A stretch of DNA of 64,000 nt, taken from assembly GCF_000221045.1 (NCBI RefSeq), contig NC_015856.1:1178001-1242000 (forward strand), in the 5' to 3' direction. The notes below the pieces were generated by a model. That model was not told the origin of the DNA. It did not search any database and worked only from the letters and a program-made list of their open reading frames with translations. Made by a program: the position numbers and the translations under genes. Within the stretch, counting starts at the first letter, position 1. Every line of letters starts with the position of its first letter. The DNA comes from Collimonas fungivorans Ter331. GTDB taxonomy: Bacteria; Pseudomonadota; Gammaproteobacteria; Burkholderiales; Burkholderiaceae_D. Of this stretch, positions 10,208 to 20,682 are shown piece by piece.

Positions 10208-10765
10208 ATGATGATGGCCTTGGGAATGTTCGTCTTTAGCCTGCCCACACTGGCGTACCAGGATCTACAGCGTCAGACCGAATGGAAGCATCCGAGCTCG
10301 GCGCGCGTCGGTACTCGTGATGCCCACCAGTACACGGGCAAGGGCGACGACACAATTACGCTGACGGGGTGGATTGCGCCGGAGTTGACCGGCAGTCTCT
10401 ATTCATTGGATGCGCTGCGCTTGATGGCCGACACGGGCAAGTCGTGGATTCTAATTCAAGGCACCGGCCGGATCTATGGATCGTTTGTGATCACCAGTAT
10501 GACCGAGGGGCGCACGGTGCTGGCAAAGAACGGGGACGCCGGGCGCGTCGATTTTGCGGTGACGTTGAAACGTACCGATGAATCCGTGCTGACTATGGCC
10601 AGCGGACTCATGGGCATGGCAGGCGGCCTCATGGGAAAGTTAGGTGACATCGGAAGCATCAAGAGCATGCTCAGTCTGGATGCCATTGGTAAGAGCCTGA
10701 AAGATACTGTTACCAGCCAATTAACGGTAGGTAATATCGTTAAAGTCGTCAAAGGGAAATTTTAA
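10208..10765 (+). CDS. U: tail protein gpU
   Basis: 185 aa; starts at the first of three consecutive ATG/ATG/ATG-type codons after AAGGAA. MFVFSLPTLAYQDLQRQTEW and the following HPSSARVG are characteristic of P2 gpU, the tail-tip completion protein. The C-terminal tail, rich in Gly/Met (ASGLMGMAGGLMGKLGDIGS), is longer than in P2. Its stop overlaps the gpD start (TAATG). Confidence 0.9.
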   Translation: MMMALGMFVFSLPTLAYQDLQRQTEWKHPSSARVGTRDAHQYTGKGDDTITLTGWIAPELTGSLYSLDALRLMADTGKSWILIQGTGRIYGSFVITSMTEGRTVLAKNGDAGRVDFAVTLKRTDESVLTMASGLMGMAGGLMGKLGDIGSIKSMLSLDAIGKSLKDTVTSQLTVGNIVKVVKGKF

Positions 10766-12054
10766 TGACCTACCCGACACCGGCTTTTAAAATTACTCTG
10801 GATGACCAGGATATTACCGCCAAGTTTGCGCCGCGCCTGGTCAGTTTGTCGCTGAGTGAATGTCGCGGCGAAGAAAGCGACCAGCTCGATATCACTTTGA
10901 CCGACGCTGACGGGAAACTGGCAATTCCCCGGCGTGGCGCGCGGATCAATGTTCAAATCGGCTGGACCGATTCGGGCCTGGTCGATAAGGGGATTTTCAC
11001 GGTTGATGAGGTCGAACATAGCGGCGTACCGGATCTGCTGACTCTACGTGCGCGTACGGCCAACCTGATTGATACTTTCCGGCAGATAAACGAGTACAGC
11101 TTTAGCAATACTACGGTCGGCGGCATCATCGAGGCGATCGCCTTCCGCCAGCAGTTACAGGCGGGCGTATCTGAGGCGTTGCGTAACATCCAGGTCAAGC
11201 ACATGGACCAGACCCGCGAAAGCGACGCGGCATTCCTGCGGCGGCTCGGGAAGAGATACGATGCGGCCGCCACGGTCAAGAATGACATGTTGATTTTCAT
11301 GCCGGCCGGCCGCAGCAAGACCCCGTCAGGCAAGGATCTGCCGACGATACAGATCACGCGCCGACTAGGTGACAGCCATCGCTTCCACACCGCCGAGCGG
11401 GATAGCTATACTGGCGTGCGCGCGTTTTGGCATGACGTGAATCACGGCGGCTTACGCCGCAGTGTGGTCGCAGGCATACCTGGTAACACCAAGCGCCTAC
11501 GAACAACCTATACCACCGAGTTCGATGCGCGCACCGTAGCTGTCGCCGAATGGCAGCGGATCCAGCGCGGCCAGGCCACATTCGAAATGTCGCTTGCCCT
11601 GGGCAACCCGGCCTTGATACCACAGTCGCCAGTCAACGTCTCAGGCTTCAAGGCAGAAATCGATAGCATGGACTGGCTTGCAGCCAAGGTTACACACAAT
11701 ATTAGTGACGGCGGCTTTACGTCACGTATCGAACTGGAAACGCGCGCAGAGGAAGTGGAAATTGAACGCGAGGATGAAGTAGATCGGGATCCGGGAATAA
11801 CGGGGGTGATTGCCAAGTGGCGCGACCTGGTCACTAAAAAGTCGGGCCAGGAACTGGAGCCAACAACCGGGGCGCGCAAACACAAGAAGTCACTGGCGGG
11901 AGCTAACGCCAATCCCAAGACCTTGCCGCGCATTTATGCCAGTCGCCAAACGGCACAACACGCGGCAAAGAGTGAGTGGGCAAAAATAACCGAGCGTCGC
12001 AACGTTATTAAGGAAAACAACGCAGACGATAAGTTGGATAGTTCAGTCGTATAG
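10765..12054 (+). CDS. D: baseplate hub / late control protein gpD
   Basis: 429 aa (P2 D 387). Phage late control D family, structurally the gp27-like hub that carries the gpV spike. Recognisable blocks are GARINVQIGW, FTVDEVEHSGVPDLLTLRA and VKHMDQTRESDAAFLRRLGKRYDA. The extra C-terminal ~60 residues are highly charged. It is the last gene of the rightward tail operon and converges on the leftward accessory genes; no clear terminator is seen in the 57-bp gap. Confidence 0.9.
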   Translation: MTYPTPAFKITLDDQDITAKFAPRLVSLSLSECRGEESDQLDITLTDADGKLAIPRRGARINVQIGWTDSGLVDKGIFTVDEVEHSGVPDLLTLRARTANLIDTFRQINEYSFSNTTVGGIIEAIAFRQQLQAGVSEALRNIQVKHMDQTRESDAAFLRRLGKRYDAAATVKNDMLIFMPAGRSKTPSGKDLPTIQITRRLGDSHRFHTAERDSYTGVRAFWHDVNHGGLRRSVVAGIPGNTKRLRTTYTTEFDARTVAVAEWQRIQRGQATFEMSLALGNPALIPQSPVNVSGFKAEIDSMDWLAAKVTHNISDGGFTSRIELETRAEEVEIEREDEVDRDPGITGVIAKWRDLVTKKSGQELEPTTGARKHKKSLAGANANPKTLPRIYASRQTAQHAAKSEWAKITERRNVIKENNADDKLDSSVV

Positions 12055-12111
12055 GTGGCGACTACACGTCATAGTTGTTTCTTCTAACTGATCTATGTCA
12101 CATGTACGAAA

Positions 12112-13386
12112 TTATGCTGCAGTTGACCATGAGAACAACCCACTGAAATCATCAGACCATAGAGAGCTATCCTTTTTCGGGAAGTAGTATGCCAATCCGT
12201 TCGTTTTAACCACTCCTGGCTCGGCCTGAAGCAATTGATTTTCGCTGAGAAAACCGACGCCGACTACATGGTCACGATTGGCTCCGTTCAAAAATTCACT
12301 GACGCGAATATTTAACGCCGTCGCATACTGTGACTTGTCGTTATCTTGATTTGCAAGTGAACGAAGTTGATCAGAACTTATTCCTTGTAATCCAGTTAGG
12401 AACATTCCGCCTCTGCTTTTGGAAAATTGTCGCTTTGCCGAATCGCTCAATGTGTCGAATACTGCTTTTAAGAACGTGTCGTCGGCCGCGCTTTCAACAA
12501 CTATTGCAAGTGCGCCGCCAGCTTCGGTCCCGATTAATATGGCTTGACGATTTGTCGTCTCGGTTATTTCATCTATGATCGTTCTTAAATTTTTTGGAAG
12601 GGATGCCGAATTGGAACCCTTCAATACATTCGTGTCAAATTCATTAATTTTGATGCTCGAACCGTCTTGAAAAATCGCACTTTTTTTTAGAAAAATGTGC
12701 TCACCAACTTTTTTAGCCAGCCCCATTCGATCGCTATATTTGGTCGGCAGTCTTCTTGGTACGGTTAGTACAACCGAAAGTCCAATAGAAAGGCTGCTTT
12801 TGACGCTTTCGAGATGAGGCATTACCAGATGGTAGAAATCAAGCGCTTCTCGCTTATGAATCTTTCTTCCTTTATCTTCCGATATAGATTTGCACTCGAC
12901 CTCTAATCCATGCGGACCGAGGCCGTTAACAAGCAGATCAAAGGTGCCTATATTTGTCATTTCCGGCCACGCTATCGACAGCCCTCGATTCACGAAGTGT
13001 GTAGCCGCGCTGAGCTCCAAACGCAAGCCACGCATGTCGTCAGGATTCCTGAACGCTCCGTGAATTCGACGCTTGAATTGCTCTGCGAGATTAGTTGGTG
13101 ATGCCTTAATGATGCCCATCGCTTGGGCGGCAAAGCTCGCGGCTGGATAGATGGCATGATTGTTCATCTTCCATGGACCAGAATTATCGCCTACTAATTC
13201 TCGAATGCTTTCAAGTTGGAAAGCTATAGAGTTTTCTCGATTAATGTGGTCGTTGAGTAATTCATTTCCTTTTATATCTTGTTGGAGTTGTATTACTCGG
13301 CTTTTCCAATGTTTGTCACCAACGAAGTTGGAGAACTCCTCATAAATTTCTGGGATCTGTCCGGTCTGTATTTCGGTCAAAATCAT
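12112..13386 (-). CDS. putative PD-(D/E)XK-type nuclease, prophage cargo
   Basis: 424 aa; no close family recognised. Residues 120-170 carry a plausible PD-(D/E)XK core: helix with E124 (LRLELSAATHFVNRG), then D150 (NIGTFDLLVNG) and E164-x-K166 (GLEVECKSISED). The spacing fits restriction-type and DNA-repair nucleases. The rest has no obvious helicase or transmembrane segment. Base composition is visibly AT-richer than the tail genes, and the gene runs against them, so it looks like cargo. It starts 10 bp after the preceding unknown gene. A role in phage defence is inference; degenerate nuclease or host-takeover roles are also possible. Confidence 0.6.
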   Translation of the reverse strand: MILTEIQTGQIPEIYEEFSNFVGDKHWKSRVIQLQQDIKGNELLNDHINRENSIAFQLESIRELVGDNSGPWKMNNHAIYPAASFAAQAMGIIKASPTNLAEQFKRRIHGAFRNPDDMRGLRLELSAATHFVNRGLSIAWPEMTNIGTFDLLVNGLGPHGLEVECKSISEDKGRKIHKREALDFYHLVMPHLESVKSSLSIGLSVVLTVPRRLPTKYSDRMGLAKKVGEHIFLKKSAIFQDGSSIKINEFDTNVLKGSNSASLPKNLRTIIDEITETTNRQAILIGTEAGGALAIVVESAADDTFLKAVFDTLSDSAKRQFSKSRGGMFLTGLQGISSDQLRSLANQDNDKSQYATALNIRVSEFLNGANRDHVVGVGFLSENQLLQAEPGVVKTNGLAYYFPKKDSSLWSDDFSGLFSWSTAA

Positions 13387-13396
13387 GGAATTTCAT

Positions 13397-13930
13397 TCAT
13401 TTGGTGTTTGTCGAAGAGGCTATTTGTTTGGCATACAGCGCACGTAGAAAATTGATTTCTGCTTTACGATGTTGCCACCCCACCAGAGTGCCGCAGGGGA
13501 ACAGCTCGTCCTTTGAATCAATCGCTATGAAATCGGGAAATGTAGAATTAGGCCTGTGCTTGTTTTCGTCATTGGTCATAATGACGGTTTCGTCGCGTTC
13601 AAGGAAGAATGCAAAGAATTCTTCCAAGGGCATTGGCTCAGTACAGTCGAAATAAAGTACCGAGGCTGTGCTAGCGCGATCCTGCTTATGCCCTCTCTGT
13701 AGTTGACGCGGAGGACGCTTAAAATCGTGGTCGGAAAATACTTGTAGCGCAGCCGGCGTTATGCCGATGACGCGCCATGACCAAGGGCGCGCACCCATCA
13801 ACCCAGTAAGCATTCGTGTCGCGTCTGCCTTAGTAAATGCGTGCTGACACGCCTTGAATGCTTTGAATTGTGCAACGTAGATCGAGTGAAGTGCGGCACG
13901 CAGTTCTTTATCGGTGTGAATGGCATGCAT
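13397..13930 (-). CDS. unknown 178-aa prophage protein
   Basis: Start chosen at MHAIHTDKELRAALHSIY because a G-rich ribosome site (AGGGGG) precedes it and the residues upstream in the open frame (to 14152) overlap the real small membrane gene. No family recognised. Notable stretches are PWSWRVIGITPAALQVFSDHDF, KLQRGHKQDR-like RQLQRGHKQDRAST, PLEEFFAFFLERDETVIMT and ELFPCGTLVGWQHRKAEINF. The His/Arg/Asp-rich middle could be an active site, but nothing proves it. It lies between the membrane protein and the nuclease-like gene, probably in one leftward transcript with them. Confidence 0.6.
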   Translation of the reverse strand: MHAIHTDKELRAALHSIYVAQFKAFKACQHAFTKADATRMLTGLMGARPWSWRVIGITPAALQVFSDHDFKRPPRQLQRGHKQDRASTASVLYFDCTEPMPLEEFFAFFLERDETVIMTNDENKHRPNSTFPDFIAIDSKDELFPCGTLVGWQHRKAEINFLRALYAKQIASSTNTK

Positions 13931-13955
13931 ATCAACCCCCTTTTCCGAATGTGGT

Positions 13956-14288
13956 TTAGTGGAGACGTTTCCATCCAATTTCATGCCAGTACGATGGCGC
14001 TTCACTGCTTGCATGAATGCACTCAAAAATCTCTCCAGAAACCATTCTCGTCGCGCTGCCAACTGAGTAATGTTTGCCGTCCAAGTAGCAATAGTTAGGT
14101 ATCGTTGATGATACCGCGCTCGCATTCGGAATTTGATACAACGACCATCCACAGATAGTCGTCATAGCAATTAGTGCGACGGATAGCTGCTTGTGGAGTT
14201 GAGGTTTTTGATGCACATCACCTATCACAACCTGCGCGATATCACCTTGAAACGCTATGGCTGTCTTTGATCGCCATCTGGCAATCAC
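13956..14288 (-). CDS. small single-pass membrane protein, DUF1496-like C-terminus
   Basis: 110 aa from a GTG start that overlaps the regulator stop (GTGA), so the two are translationally coupled. N-terminus contains GDIAQVVIGDVHQKPQL; residues 34-51 form one hydrophobic segment; the outer part holds a motif YCYLDGKHYSVGSATRM...FECIHA that resembles small Cys-containing periplasmic DUF1496-like domains (CxYxGxxYSxG...C). The N-terminal QVVIGD echoes QVVAGD at the C-terminus of the upstream regulator. Function unknown. Confidence 0.6.
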   Translation of the reverse strand: MIARWRSKTAIAFQGDIAQVVIGDVHQKPQLHKQLSVALIAMTTICGWSLYQIPNASAVSSTIPNYCYLDGKHYSVGSATRMVSGEIFECIHASSEAPSYWHEIGWKRLH

Positions 14289-14731
14289 TCCGGTAATGTT
14301 TTTTTCTTTTTCTTCGGGCCAGAGCCTATCGTCAGCCCGCCATGGATCGTTTGATCTCCCGCGACGACTTGTTCGACCTTACCGGCAAATTTCAAGTTAG
14401 GCGCGGCTTTCATAGGTGTGCCGACAACTTCAAGCATACCGAGCATATTTGCCTTTCCTCGGATATCCAGTCCGCGATAGCCCGCTATTAGCTCTTTTTC
14501 GTCTGCGGCCAACGTTGAAGTCGAGCGCTCACCGGACAAGATGTACAGAACATCTCCACCGATAGCCAAAAGCTTTGCGAGTACATCGCCACCTGGCACG
14601 GCTTGCCCGCGTTCATATTTGCTCCACATATTCTGGCTAATGCCGATATGTACGGTCATTTCTTGCTGTGTAAAACCAAGTCGGTCGCGCTCTTCACGCA
14701 GGCGCACTCCAAAATTATTATTAAAGTTCAT
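14285..14731 (-). CDS. XRE-family repressor-like regulator
   Basis: 148 aa. Residues 8-66 are an HTH_XRE domain (GVRLREERDRLGFTQQEMTVH, then SKYERGQAVPGGDVL). There is no peptidase domain, so it is not a LexA/CI self-cleaving type. Residues 119-136 carry VEQVVAGDQTIHGGLTIG, followed by a PKKKKK tail. Divergent from the early genes across a palindromic operator, the position of a lysogeny repressor. It starts the leftward cargo transcript. No strong ribosome site is visible before ATG 14731. Confidence 0.75.
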   Translation of the reverse strand: MNFNNNFGVRLREERDRLGFTQQEMTVHIGISQNMWSKYERGQAVPGGDVLAKLLAIGGDVLYILSGERSTSTLAADEKELIAGYRGLDIRGKANMLGMLEVVGTPMKAAPNLKFAGKVEQVVAGDQTIHGGLTIGSGPKKKKKTLPE

Positions 14732-14739
14732 AAAAACCG

Positions 14740-14767
14740 TTCACATGTAACACTATAGTGTTATACA
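14740..14767 (+). promoter_or_regulatory. divergent control region: palindromic operator and early promoter
   Basis: AACACTATAGTGTT (14749-14762) is a perfect 14-bp palindrome between the XRE gene and the rightward early genes. It sits inside a possible rightward promoter: TTCACA (14740-14745), 16-bp spacer, TATACA (14762-14767). Repressor binding there would block early transcription. Promoter strength and binding are inferred from sequence only. Confidence 0.6.
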
Positions 14768-14803
14768 ATTGCGCCATCCCTAGCGATTACGAATCATATC
14801 ATC

Positions 14804-15031
14804 ATGACAAAGAAGCCCCCAGCTCGACGCTCTCCTAAATACATTTTGGAAAAGCCCATAGGCATTCGGTTAAAGCCGGATGAAAAGATTCTCGTTGAAA
14901 TCTATGCCTCCCATGAATATCTGTCCCGTGCCGCATTCCTTCGTCGCATTGTTTTGCTCGGTGTGGAGCAGTACGAACAAAAACGTACCGATAACCCGTC
15001 AACAAAAAGGACACCGTTATGCACAAAATAA
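14804..15031 (+). CDS. small ribbon-helix-helix-like DNA-binding protein
   Basis: 75 aa, first gene of the rightward early block. Basic N-terminus (MTKKPPARRSPKYILEKP) followed by IGIRLKPDEKILVEIYASHE and SRAAFLRRIVLLGVEQYE, which looks like a beta-strand then two helices of an RHH fold (Arc/MetJ type). The position, facing the repressor across the operator, suggests a Cro-like role. Family assignment is moderate. Confidence 0.55.
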   Translation: MTKKPPARRSPKYILEKPIGIRLKPDEKILVEIYASHEYLSRAAFLRRIVLLGVEQYEQKRTDNPSTKRTPLCTK

Positions 15032-15084
15032 AGTTTATCTCTACCTGCACCCATCAGCACGCAGTTGTTAGTGGGTGGCAATGA
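15019..15084 (+). CDS. possible 21-aa leader peptide upstream of cII-like gene
   Basis: An ATG at 15019 opens MHKIKFISTCTHQHAVVSGW, ending at TGA 15082-15084, which overlaps the ATG at 15081 of the next gene (ATGA). It overlaps the last codons of the preceding gene. Such tight packing fits translational coupling, but the peptide is short, and there is no homology evidence. Confidence 0.3.
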   Translation: MHKIKFISTCTHQHAVVSGWQ

Positions 15085-15365
15085 TGAAGCGACCAATGCA
15101 AATTGAACAGGCCTTGCGCAGCGCTCTCACCGGCCCGGGTCGGCAGGATGTGCAGCACAAAGTGGGGTGGGACGATTCCCAGGTCAGCCGTTTCCTTAAT
15201 GGTGGCCAGGGCATCGTCATTGACAAAATCGACTCACTGGTTGCCGCTGTTGGATTCGTGATGGTGACCTGCAAATATCTTGATGCCGTATCGACTTTGG
15301 GCGAGGTTGGCATGCATTGCGAGTGCGCTCGGCAAGGTCAGGGCGAATGCTCACGCCGGGTATAG
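15081..15365 (+). CDS. phage CII-like transcriptional activator
   Basis: 94 aa from ATG 15081 (a GTG at 15075 would add two residues). IEQALRSALTGPGRQDVQHKV, GWDDSQVSRFLNGGQGI and DKIDSLVAAVGFV closely follow the lambdoid CII HTH family, with the helix pair DSQVSRFLNG recognising DNA. The C-terminus CECARQGQGECSRRV is a Cys-containing tail seen in beta- and gammaproteobacterial CII-like proteins. Probably regulates the lysogeny/lysis choice or early genes. Confidence 0.8.
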   Translation: MMKRPMQIEQALRSALTGPGRQDVQHKVGWDDSQVSRFLNGGQGIVIDKIDSLVAAVGFVMVTCKYLDAVSTLGEVGMHCECARQGQGECSRRV

Positions 15366-15440: not shown

Positions 15441-15701
15441 ATGAGAAATATTGGACTGTGCTGTCCCTTTTGTTCCACGCCGCCACGCGCCGTTAAAAGC
15501 CGTGTGCTTTCGTCGTTGATGAAAGAGATCACCTATCAATGCAAAAACCCCGAATGTGGTTATTCCTTCATCGCCAGTTTGGAAATATCACGGACGCTGT
15601 CGGTGTCTTCTATTGCCAAGCCTGAGATCAGGGTCCCACTGTCTCGGCACATTAATTGGTCTGCCATAAATCAGCTGACCTTGAATCTGACAACAGCTTG
15701 A
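15441..15701 (+). CDS. ogr: Ogr/Delta-type zinc-finger late transcription activator
   Basis: 86 aa. Cysteines at 8, 11, 34 and 39 give the C-X2-C-X22-C-X4-C pattern of Ogr/Delta proteins (CPFC...CKNPECGYSF). In P2 and P4 these bind zinc and RNA polymerase alpha to activate the late promoters for capsid and tail genes, so this gene should switch on the tail operon at 1-12054. It lies in the early block rather than beside gpD, as in P2. I could not find a clear TGT-N12-ACA late promoter in the window. Confidence 0.85.
   Translation: MRNIGLCCPFCSTPPRAVKSRVLSSLMKEITYQCKNPECGYSFIASLEISRTLSVSSIAKPEIRVPLSRHINWSAINQLTLNLTTA

Positions 15702-20603: not shown

Positions 20604-20682
<79 letters not shown>

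What the first reader, a model, noticed from the sequence alone, without database searches (positions are those of the whole stretch)
12112..14731. AT-rich cargo block in a P2-like prophage with a PD-(D/E)XK-like nuclease
Four genes run opposite to the tail operon between gpD and the early genes, with visibly lower GC. The last one has E124, D150 and E164-x-K166 in the spacing of PD-(D/E)XK nucleases; another is a 178-aa unknown; the first is an XRE regulator. P2-like phages are known to carry anti-phage genes in variable loci. Together the nuclease, unknown partner and membrane protein could be a superinfection-exclusion or abortive system under the repressor's control.
Basis: partly seen in the sequence, partly recalled or inferred. 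Interest (0 to 1): 0.7.

Follow-up and report, generated by a model that had tools for sequence, protein, structure and literature searches.

The report
Prophage cargo nuclease in defence hotspot
A dormant virus in a bacterium carries, at a spot where related viruses swap anti-virus genes, an undescribed nuclease-like protein that probably helps keep other viruses or plasmids out, beside a repressor and a small membrane-type protein that share an unexplained matching tag.

Summary
In detail: four minus-strand genes at 12112-14731, GC 44-50% against 57% for the tail genes, with E124, D150 and E164-x-K166 in the 424-aa protein. The four residues are invariant in 34 of 34 aligned rows (ExK partly selected by the search) and in a 13-row set reaching down to 16% identity. 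The core profile matches the Mrr catalytic domain (hhalign 88.6%) and the predicted topology fits; no solved structure matched significantly. It is very probably a PD-(D/E)XK nuclease of an uncatalogued family, found on plasmids, chromosomes and another phage.

The four genes are not one system. Repressor and membrane-type protein recur in related prophages; nuclease and 178-aa protein are cargo, absent from 80 gpD-related viral loci and nine same-genus regions, and not found together in 49 other nuclease loci. The gpD-repressor interval varies from 80 to 7062 bp and holds defence genes. A stand-alone exclusion nuclease is most likely; activity is untested.

Unexpected: repressor tail and membrane-protein head share a 13-residue motif that matches better within than between phages (p about 4e-5).

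The parts
14285..14731 (-). XRE-type repressor, 148 aa; C-terminal tail carries the shared motif (FAGKVEQVVAGDQ)
   Evidence: Pfam HTH_31/HTH_19/HTH_3 over cut-off; homologues at this place in 51 of 80 gpD-related viral loci
13956..14288 (-). 110-aa probable membrane protein, GTG start, N-terminal shared motif (FQGDIAQVVIGDV)
   Evidence: phrog_6521 E 6e-6; hydropathy maximum 1.47 at 35-53; relatives in 19 of 80 gpD-related loci and in 6 of 9 same-genus regions
13397..13930 (-). 178-aa cargo protein of unknown function, conserved RGH..(D/N)R and N.H
   Evidence: No family or structure match; relatives on 2 plasmid records and in 5 of 398 other genomes of the order; alignment of 4
12112..13386 (-). 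424-aa PD-(D/E)XK-type nuclease, cargo; catalytic residues E124, D150, E164, K166
   Evidence: Alignments, model pLDDT 88, pTM 0.86, hhalign to Mrr_cat 88.6%
10765..12054 (+). gpD-like tail gene, left border of the variable interval
   Evidence: Relatives in viral contigs and in 6 other same-genus genomes
14804..15031 (+). Arc-like regulator, first rightward gene beyond the repressor
   Evidence: phrog_3431 E 3.1e-7
15441..15701 (+). Ogr/Delta-like late activator, marks the P2-like type
   Evidence: Pfam Ogr_Delta E 1.3e-15

Best explanation
The 424-aa protein is a PD-(D/E)XK nuclease of an uncatalogued family, carried as cargo in the gpD-repressor interval of a P2-like prophage. Because it lies downstream of the repressor in a tight run of genes, it is probably made in the lysogen, where it most likely cuts incoming phage or plasmid DNA and so protects host and prophage. 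It needs no fixed partner. The 178-aa gene is a second, independent cargo gene; the repressor and the membrane-type protein are the phage's own immunity module. Shown: gene order, conservation, profile match, variable site, no recurring partner. Inferred: expression in the lysogen, nuclease activity, exclusion function.
For: Invariant E124/D150/E164/K166, including 16-19% identical relatives found without the motif pattern. Core profile to Mrr_cat 88.6%, E 2.6e-6, catalytic residues superposed, while the N- and C-terminal parts of the same protein give at most 0.25%. Predicted order helix-strand-strand-strand-helix-strand around these residues. No partner in 49 other loci. Site variable, 80-7062 bp in 51 loci; G406 has 144 bp there with early genes 87-99% identical. 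Cargo in relatives includes GmrSD, HEPN, AbiTii, putAbiC, MmeI and PtuA/AriA-type proteins.
Against: No significant Foldseek match of the full model (PDB, BFVD) or of the core model (PDB); the core folded alone was poor (pTM 0.49). NERD, another family of the superfamily, did not match, though Mrr and NERD also hardly match each other (8.2%). No PADLOC model hits the family (34 rows: two chance-level hits). Many relatives sit among ordinary genes, and the defence-gene counts have no random control. Activity and expression unmeasured.
Confidence: 0.6

Rival explanations
1. The nuclease is a toxin-like effector that acts on the host's own nucleic acid after infection (abortive infection), with the 178-aa protein as its trigger or antidote.
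For: The two genes are 10 nt apart, and abortive-type genes (putAbiC, AbiTii, HEPN) occur at the same site in relatives.
Against: The 178-aa protein is in none of 49 other nuclease loci, so it is not a required partner; no other neighbour family recurs in more than 5 of 47 loci.
Confidence: 0.15
2. The nuclease serves the element itself, in DNA processing or recombination, or decays in place as a passenger.
For: The family rides on plasmids, in islands beside integrases and in phages; some PD-(D/E)XK enzymes are resolvases or homing enzymes (general knowledge), and the non-significant top hit of the core model is the homing enzyme I-Ssp6803I (E 3).
Against: It is absent from related prophages (80 viral loci, nine same-genus regions), which evidently do without it, and the active site is kept in divergent relatives.
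Confidence: 0.13
3. The four genes form one exclusion system under the repressor.
For: They lie in one operon-like run, all of lower GC than the phage.
Against: Repressor and membrane-type protein recur without the nuclease in related prophages, and the nuclease recurs without them.
Confidence: 0.07

Closest known systems
Mrr-type restriction nucleases (Pfam PF04471, Mrr_cat)
   Same: Catalytic core: Glu in the first helix, Asp, then E/Q-x-K, aligned residue on residue
   Different: No Pfam Mrr_cat match in single-protein scans; long N- and C-terminal parts unmatched by the Mrr profile
Defence hotspots of E. coli P2-like phages (Rousset et al. 2022, PMC9122126, passages read)
   Same: Small variable locus between two conserved phage genes, with defence genes
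   Different: There between gpA and gpQ, or cI and int in Vibrio; here between gpD and the repressor
Morons of Burkholderia phages (PMC2920897, passages read)
   Same: Cargo of different GC between conserved phage genes, hotspots noted, endonucleases among the cargo
   Different: This nuclease family and this interval are not named in the passages seen
Bacterial amyloid signalling motifs, BASS (PMC12261475, passages read)
   Same: A short shared motif in two proteins encoded side by side
   Different: BASS link NLR receptors to effectors; here one partner is a phage repressor. No BASS model was run and amyloid formation is unknown
Membrane-bound nuclease that cleaves phage DNA during injection (PMC13190303, search listing only)
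   Same: A nuclease acting directly on incoming phage DNA, the mode proposed here
   Different: Only title and first lines of the abstract seen; no sequence comparison made

Membership tests
PD-(D/E)XK nuclease superfamily | Conserved Asp and (E/D/Q)-x-Lys, usually with a Glu in the preceding helix | tested here: met
   Invariant in 9/9, 34/34 and 13/13 rows; the 34-row set was found by a pattern holding ECK
PD-(D/E)XK nuclease superfamily | Helix-strand-strand-strand-helix-strand core carrying these residues | tested here: inconclusive
   Order present in the full model but no significant Foldseek match
PD-(D/E)XK nuclease superfamily | Profile similarity to a known member with catalytic residues aligned | tested here: met
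   Mrr_cat 88.6%, E 2.6e-6 with A3 rows; 74% with A2 rows, 44% full length; NERD at most 2.3%
PD-(D/E)XK nuclease superfamily | Metal-dependent nuclease activity | not testable with these tools
   Needs purified protein
Mrr family (PF04471) | Match to the Mrr_cat model over its cut-off | tested here: not met
   0 Pfam families for the protein at E 1; Mrr_cat not among hits of 9 relatives
Catalogued anti-phage systems (PADLOC-DB 2.0.0) | Match to a PADLOC protein model | tested here: not met
   None for the protein; among 34 rows only one row each at E 0.024 and 0.027
P2-like defence hotspot | Variable cargo between two conserved phage genes, including known defence genes | tested here: met
   Gap 80-7062 bp in 51 loci, cargo changing; defence families in 106 scanned cargo ORFs
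P2-like defence hotspot | Position between gpA and gpQ as described in E. coli | tested here: not met
   Lies between gpD and the repressor; described position from PMC9122126
Bacterial amyloid signalling pair (BASS) | Receptor is an NLR protein | tested here: not met
   The partner is a 148-aa XRE repressor
Bacterial amyloid signalling pair (BASS) | Motif able to form amyloid, matching a BASS family model | not tested
   No such model or assay here

The most novel reading that the evidence does not exclude
The repressor and the membrane-type protein form a partner-specific pair: a motif of about 13 residues at the end of the repressor binds the same motif at the start of the membrane protein, by strand or amyloid-like stacking. 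The lysogeny repressor would be tethered to, or released from, the membrane, linking immunity or prophage induction to events at the cell envelope, such as arrival of another phage. The cargo genes in the same operon would then be set by a membrane-sensing switch. Such an envelope-coupled repressor would be a new kind of lysogeny control.
Probability: 0.2. Interest if true: 0.75.

Novelty: new member of a known kind. Interest (0 to 1): 0.5.

Why it matters
It shows a cargo hotspot at a position (gpD-repressor) that the P2-like hotspot passages read here do not describe, and an uncatalogued nuclease family with an invariant active site, a ready candidate for a single-gene defence test. The motif shared by repressor and membrane-type protein, if it mediates binding, would be a new way to couple lysogeny control to the membrane.

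Tried and rejected
Family scans gave nothing significant for the nuclease, the 178-aa protein or (outside PHROGs) the membrane-type protein. PDB sequence searches with A1, A3, A4 and A8 gave nothing meaningful. Foldseek of the full model (PDB, BFVD) and of the core model (PDB) gave no significant match; folding the core alone lost strands. NERD was tried as a second superfamily profile and failed. Phage-record searches with the nuclease, the 178-aa protein and 9 kb of DNA around the block found nothing. A first scan of genome contigs with the single protein found no relative; the alignment found 35 loci. A strict regular expression missed the motif; reading the tails showed it.

Rejected: a four-gene system (no co-occurrence); recent DNA duplication as cause of the shared motif (identical residues use identical codons in 22 of 65 cases over 9 pairs); a fixed phage block (variable site).

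Rows dropped: A2 left out 3 of 35 genome-contig loci (L030, L033, L038). A1 used 7 of 16 plasmid hits plus L002. The 49 other nuclease loci include near-duplicates (L002/L043, L005/L042). The Mrr profile used 16 of 20 matches, the NERD profile 15 of 29. The neighbour scan used 130 proteins of 36 loci; near-duplicate loci and proteins over 1000 aa left out. The cargo scan used 106 of 141 ORFs; five loci and ORFs under 110 aa left out. The family scans by alignment list only the first 25 families (of 166, 82, 242 and 49). The motif test used 12 pairs, then 10 and 9; L127 (shifted register), L055, L082, L209, L210 and loci repeating a pair were left out, and the register was set by hand. Threshold 12 was my choice, and the window is not in that table. 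One 108-bp gpD fragment of G405 was not fetched; L238 shows no repressor.

Full report
What is there. The window is 1178001-1242000 of a single-contig 5,186,898-base genome. From recall of the genome size I take it to be Collimonas fungivorans Ter331; the tools give only kinship labels. Between gpD (10765-12054) and the rightward early genes lie four leftward genes in a tight run: XRE repressor, 110-aa membrane-type protein, 178-aa unknown, 424-aa protein. GC falls from 57.1% in the tail genes to 44-50%, and GC3 from 65-71% to 43-51%. No minus-strand promoter- or terminator-like site was found in 11900-15100; this weak scan also missed any promoter for the repressor, so it only fails to contradict one operon.

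The 424-aa protein. No curated library knows it. Relatives: none in 50,697 phage records, 16 plasmid records, 35 loci in genome contigs, one other viral contig, L053, 2 of 398 other genomes of the order, one of them weak at E 0.008 with stops, and 3 of 397 others of the phylum. E124, D150, E164 and K166 are invariant in 9 of 9 and 34 of 34 rows. The 34 carry a bias: their loci were found by a pattern that includes ECK. The less biased set is A3, which holds plasmid relatives found by tblastn, three of them at 16-19% identity: only seven columns are invariant in 13 rows, and four of them are these residues.

Fold. AlphaFold2 gave pLDDT 88, pTM 0.86. The elements read helix 115-133 (E124), strand 137-139, strand 151-154 (D150 just before it), strand 161-168 (E164, K166), helix 178-198, strand 202-209, the order expected of a PD-(D/E)XK core (general knowledge). 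Foldseek found no significant match in PDB or BFVD; among weak BFVD hits with short, tight alignments one is named PD(D/E)XK endonuclease (E 0.53, probability 0.66). The core folded alone was poor (pTM 0.49); its best PDB hit was the homing enzyme I-Ssp6803I at E 3, not significant. Profile comparison was clearer: core (A3 rows) against Mrr_cat, built from 16 sequences, gave 88.6% and E 2.6e-6 for the single comparison, with the catalytic residues superposed. With A2 rows it gave 74%, full length 44%; NERD at most 2.3%; the N- and C-terminal parts of the protein at most 0.25%; Mrr against NERD itself only 8.2%. I conclude a PD-(D/E)XK nuclease, related to but not a member of Mrr.

No partner. 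In 49 other loci of this family (some near-duplicates, 8 under 8 kb) the 178-aa, membrane-type and repressor proteins were not found. The commonest neighbour family is in 5 of 47 loci and reads like a tyrosine integrase (my reading). Among 130 neighbours of 36 loci, PADLOC and Pfam list AbiEii (2), LmuB (2), mad3 (2), PDC-S06, PDC-S39, PD-Lambda-3_B, PhdYefM (3) and phage integrase (3), without a random control and with only the first 25 families shown. Many other neighbours are housekeeping genes; in two Methylomonas loci (L019, L037) the gene lies between PfkB-type and UbiA-type neighbours. L053 lies in a phage with terminase- and portal-like genes (my reading).

The site. Of 80 gpD-related viral loci (capped list), 51 show the repressor; the gap from gpD is 80-7062 bp and its content changes. 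Neither the nuclease nor the 178-aa gene is in any of the 80, some of which end before the repressor. Among 106 of 141 cargo ORFs: PtuA, PDC-M01A and AriA models (3 each, probably the same ATPases), GmrSD_N (2), two HEPN families (2 each), putAbiC (2), RelA_SpoT (2), protein kinase (2), AbiTii (1) and MmeI (1), again without a random control. Within the genus, gpD matched in 7 of 15 genomes, own included. Nine regions were read; neither gene is in them. The clearest is G406: phrog_20051 protein 98.9%, replication protein 93.8%, Ogr 87% identical, but 144 bp between gpD and a different repressor.

The 178-aa protein. Five of 398 other genomes of the order (two of them at E above 1e-3) and two plasmid records carry relatives. 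Four rows share RGH..(D/N)R and N.H. No structure or family match. Function unknown; I treat it as separate cargo.

Repressor and membrane-type protein. The repressor tail (FAGKVEQVVAGDQ) and the membrane protein's start (FQGDIAQVVIGDV) are alike, and so are the pairs in other prophages. Cognate pairs score higher than re-dealt pairs: 12 pairs, 0 of 50,000 permutations; 10 dereplicated, p 4e-5; 9 without the window, p 1.4e-4. Still, the cognate partner ranks first in only 4 of 10 rows. A matrix built from repressor tails only, run over 10,227 ORFs of the gpD loci and nine same-genus regions (counts), puts in its ten top non-repressor places proteins of the gpD-repressor interval, about seven distinct ones; the next score, 17.7, is a chance ORF. 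Repressors have the motif in 25 of 26 loci with the membrane-type protein and in 17 of 33 without it (Fisher p 1.3e-4; by distinct strings 14 of 15 and 4 of 16), uncorrected for kinship. So the motif also persists without the partner. Identical residues use the same codon in 22 of 65 cases, so it is not a fresh DNA copy. The register was set by hand and kinship can inflate these numbers. A binding pair is the natural guess; it is not shown.

Literature. Rousset et al. 2022 (PMC9122126, passages) describe P2-like hotspots between gpA and gpQ and, in Vibrio, between cI and int. PMC2920897 (passages) describes moron hotspots in Burkholderia phages. PMC12261475 (passages) describes BASS motifs. 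PMC13190303, a membrane-bound nuclease that cuts phage DNA at injection, was seen only in a listing. In the listings I saw no title or abstract opening describing this nuclease, the gpD-repressor interval as a defence hotspot, or the shared motif; that covers open-licence papers and the listed rows only.

Verdict. Observation confirmed; nuclease reading supported; the four-gene system not. The likeliest function is a stand-alone exclusion nuclease in a variable site.

Noticed in passing
window 14285-14731 and 13956-14288; L062, L066, L068, L086, L206-L208, L211, L212, L214, L218, L219, L239: Repressor tail and membrane-protein head share a 13-residue motif that matches better within than between phages.
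   Followed up: partly
L239:2762-3142 (same-genus genome G409): A 126-aa ORF joins the membrane-protein type motif at its start to a repressor-like C-terminal half with its own tail motif.
   Followed up: no
L057, L059, L071, L072, L084 (repressor 3' ends): The membrane-protein reading frame begins inside the repressor gene's 3' end in another frame; in L084 the repressor frame runs into residues like the membrane protein's.
   Followed up: no
L062:13296-13976, L066:11937-12638, L086:11265-11945: Longer relatives of the 110-aa protein (226-233 aa) hold an extra middle part between motif and C-terminal part.
   Followed up: partly
L019 and L037 (two Methylomonas genomes): The nuclease gene sits at the same chromosomal place, between PfkB-type and UbiA-type genes; M. 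fluvii holds a second, 38% identical copy elsewhere, L049.
   Followed up: partly
window 20604-20682: tRNA-Met gene (CAT anticodon) on the minus strand beyond the replication genes; whether it is the attachment site was not examined.
   Followed up: no
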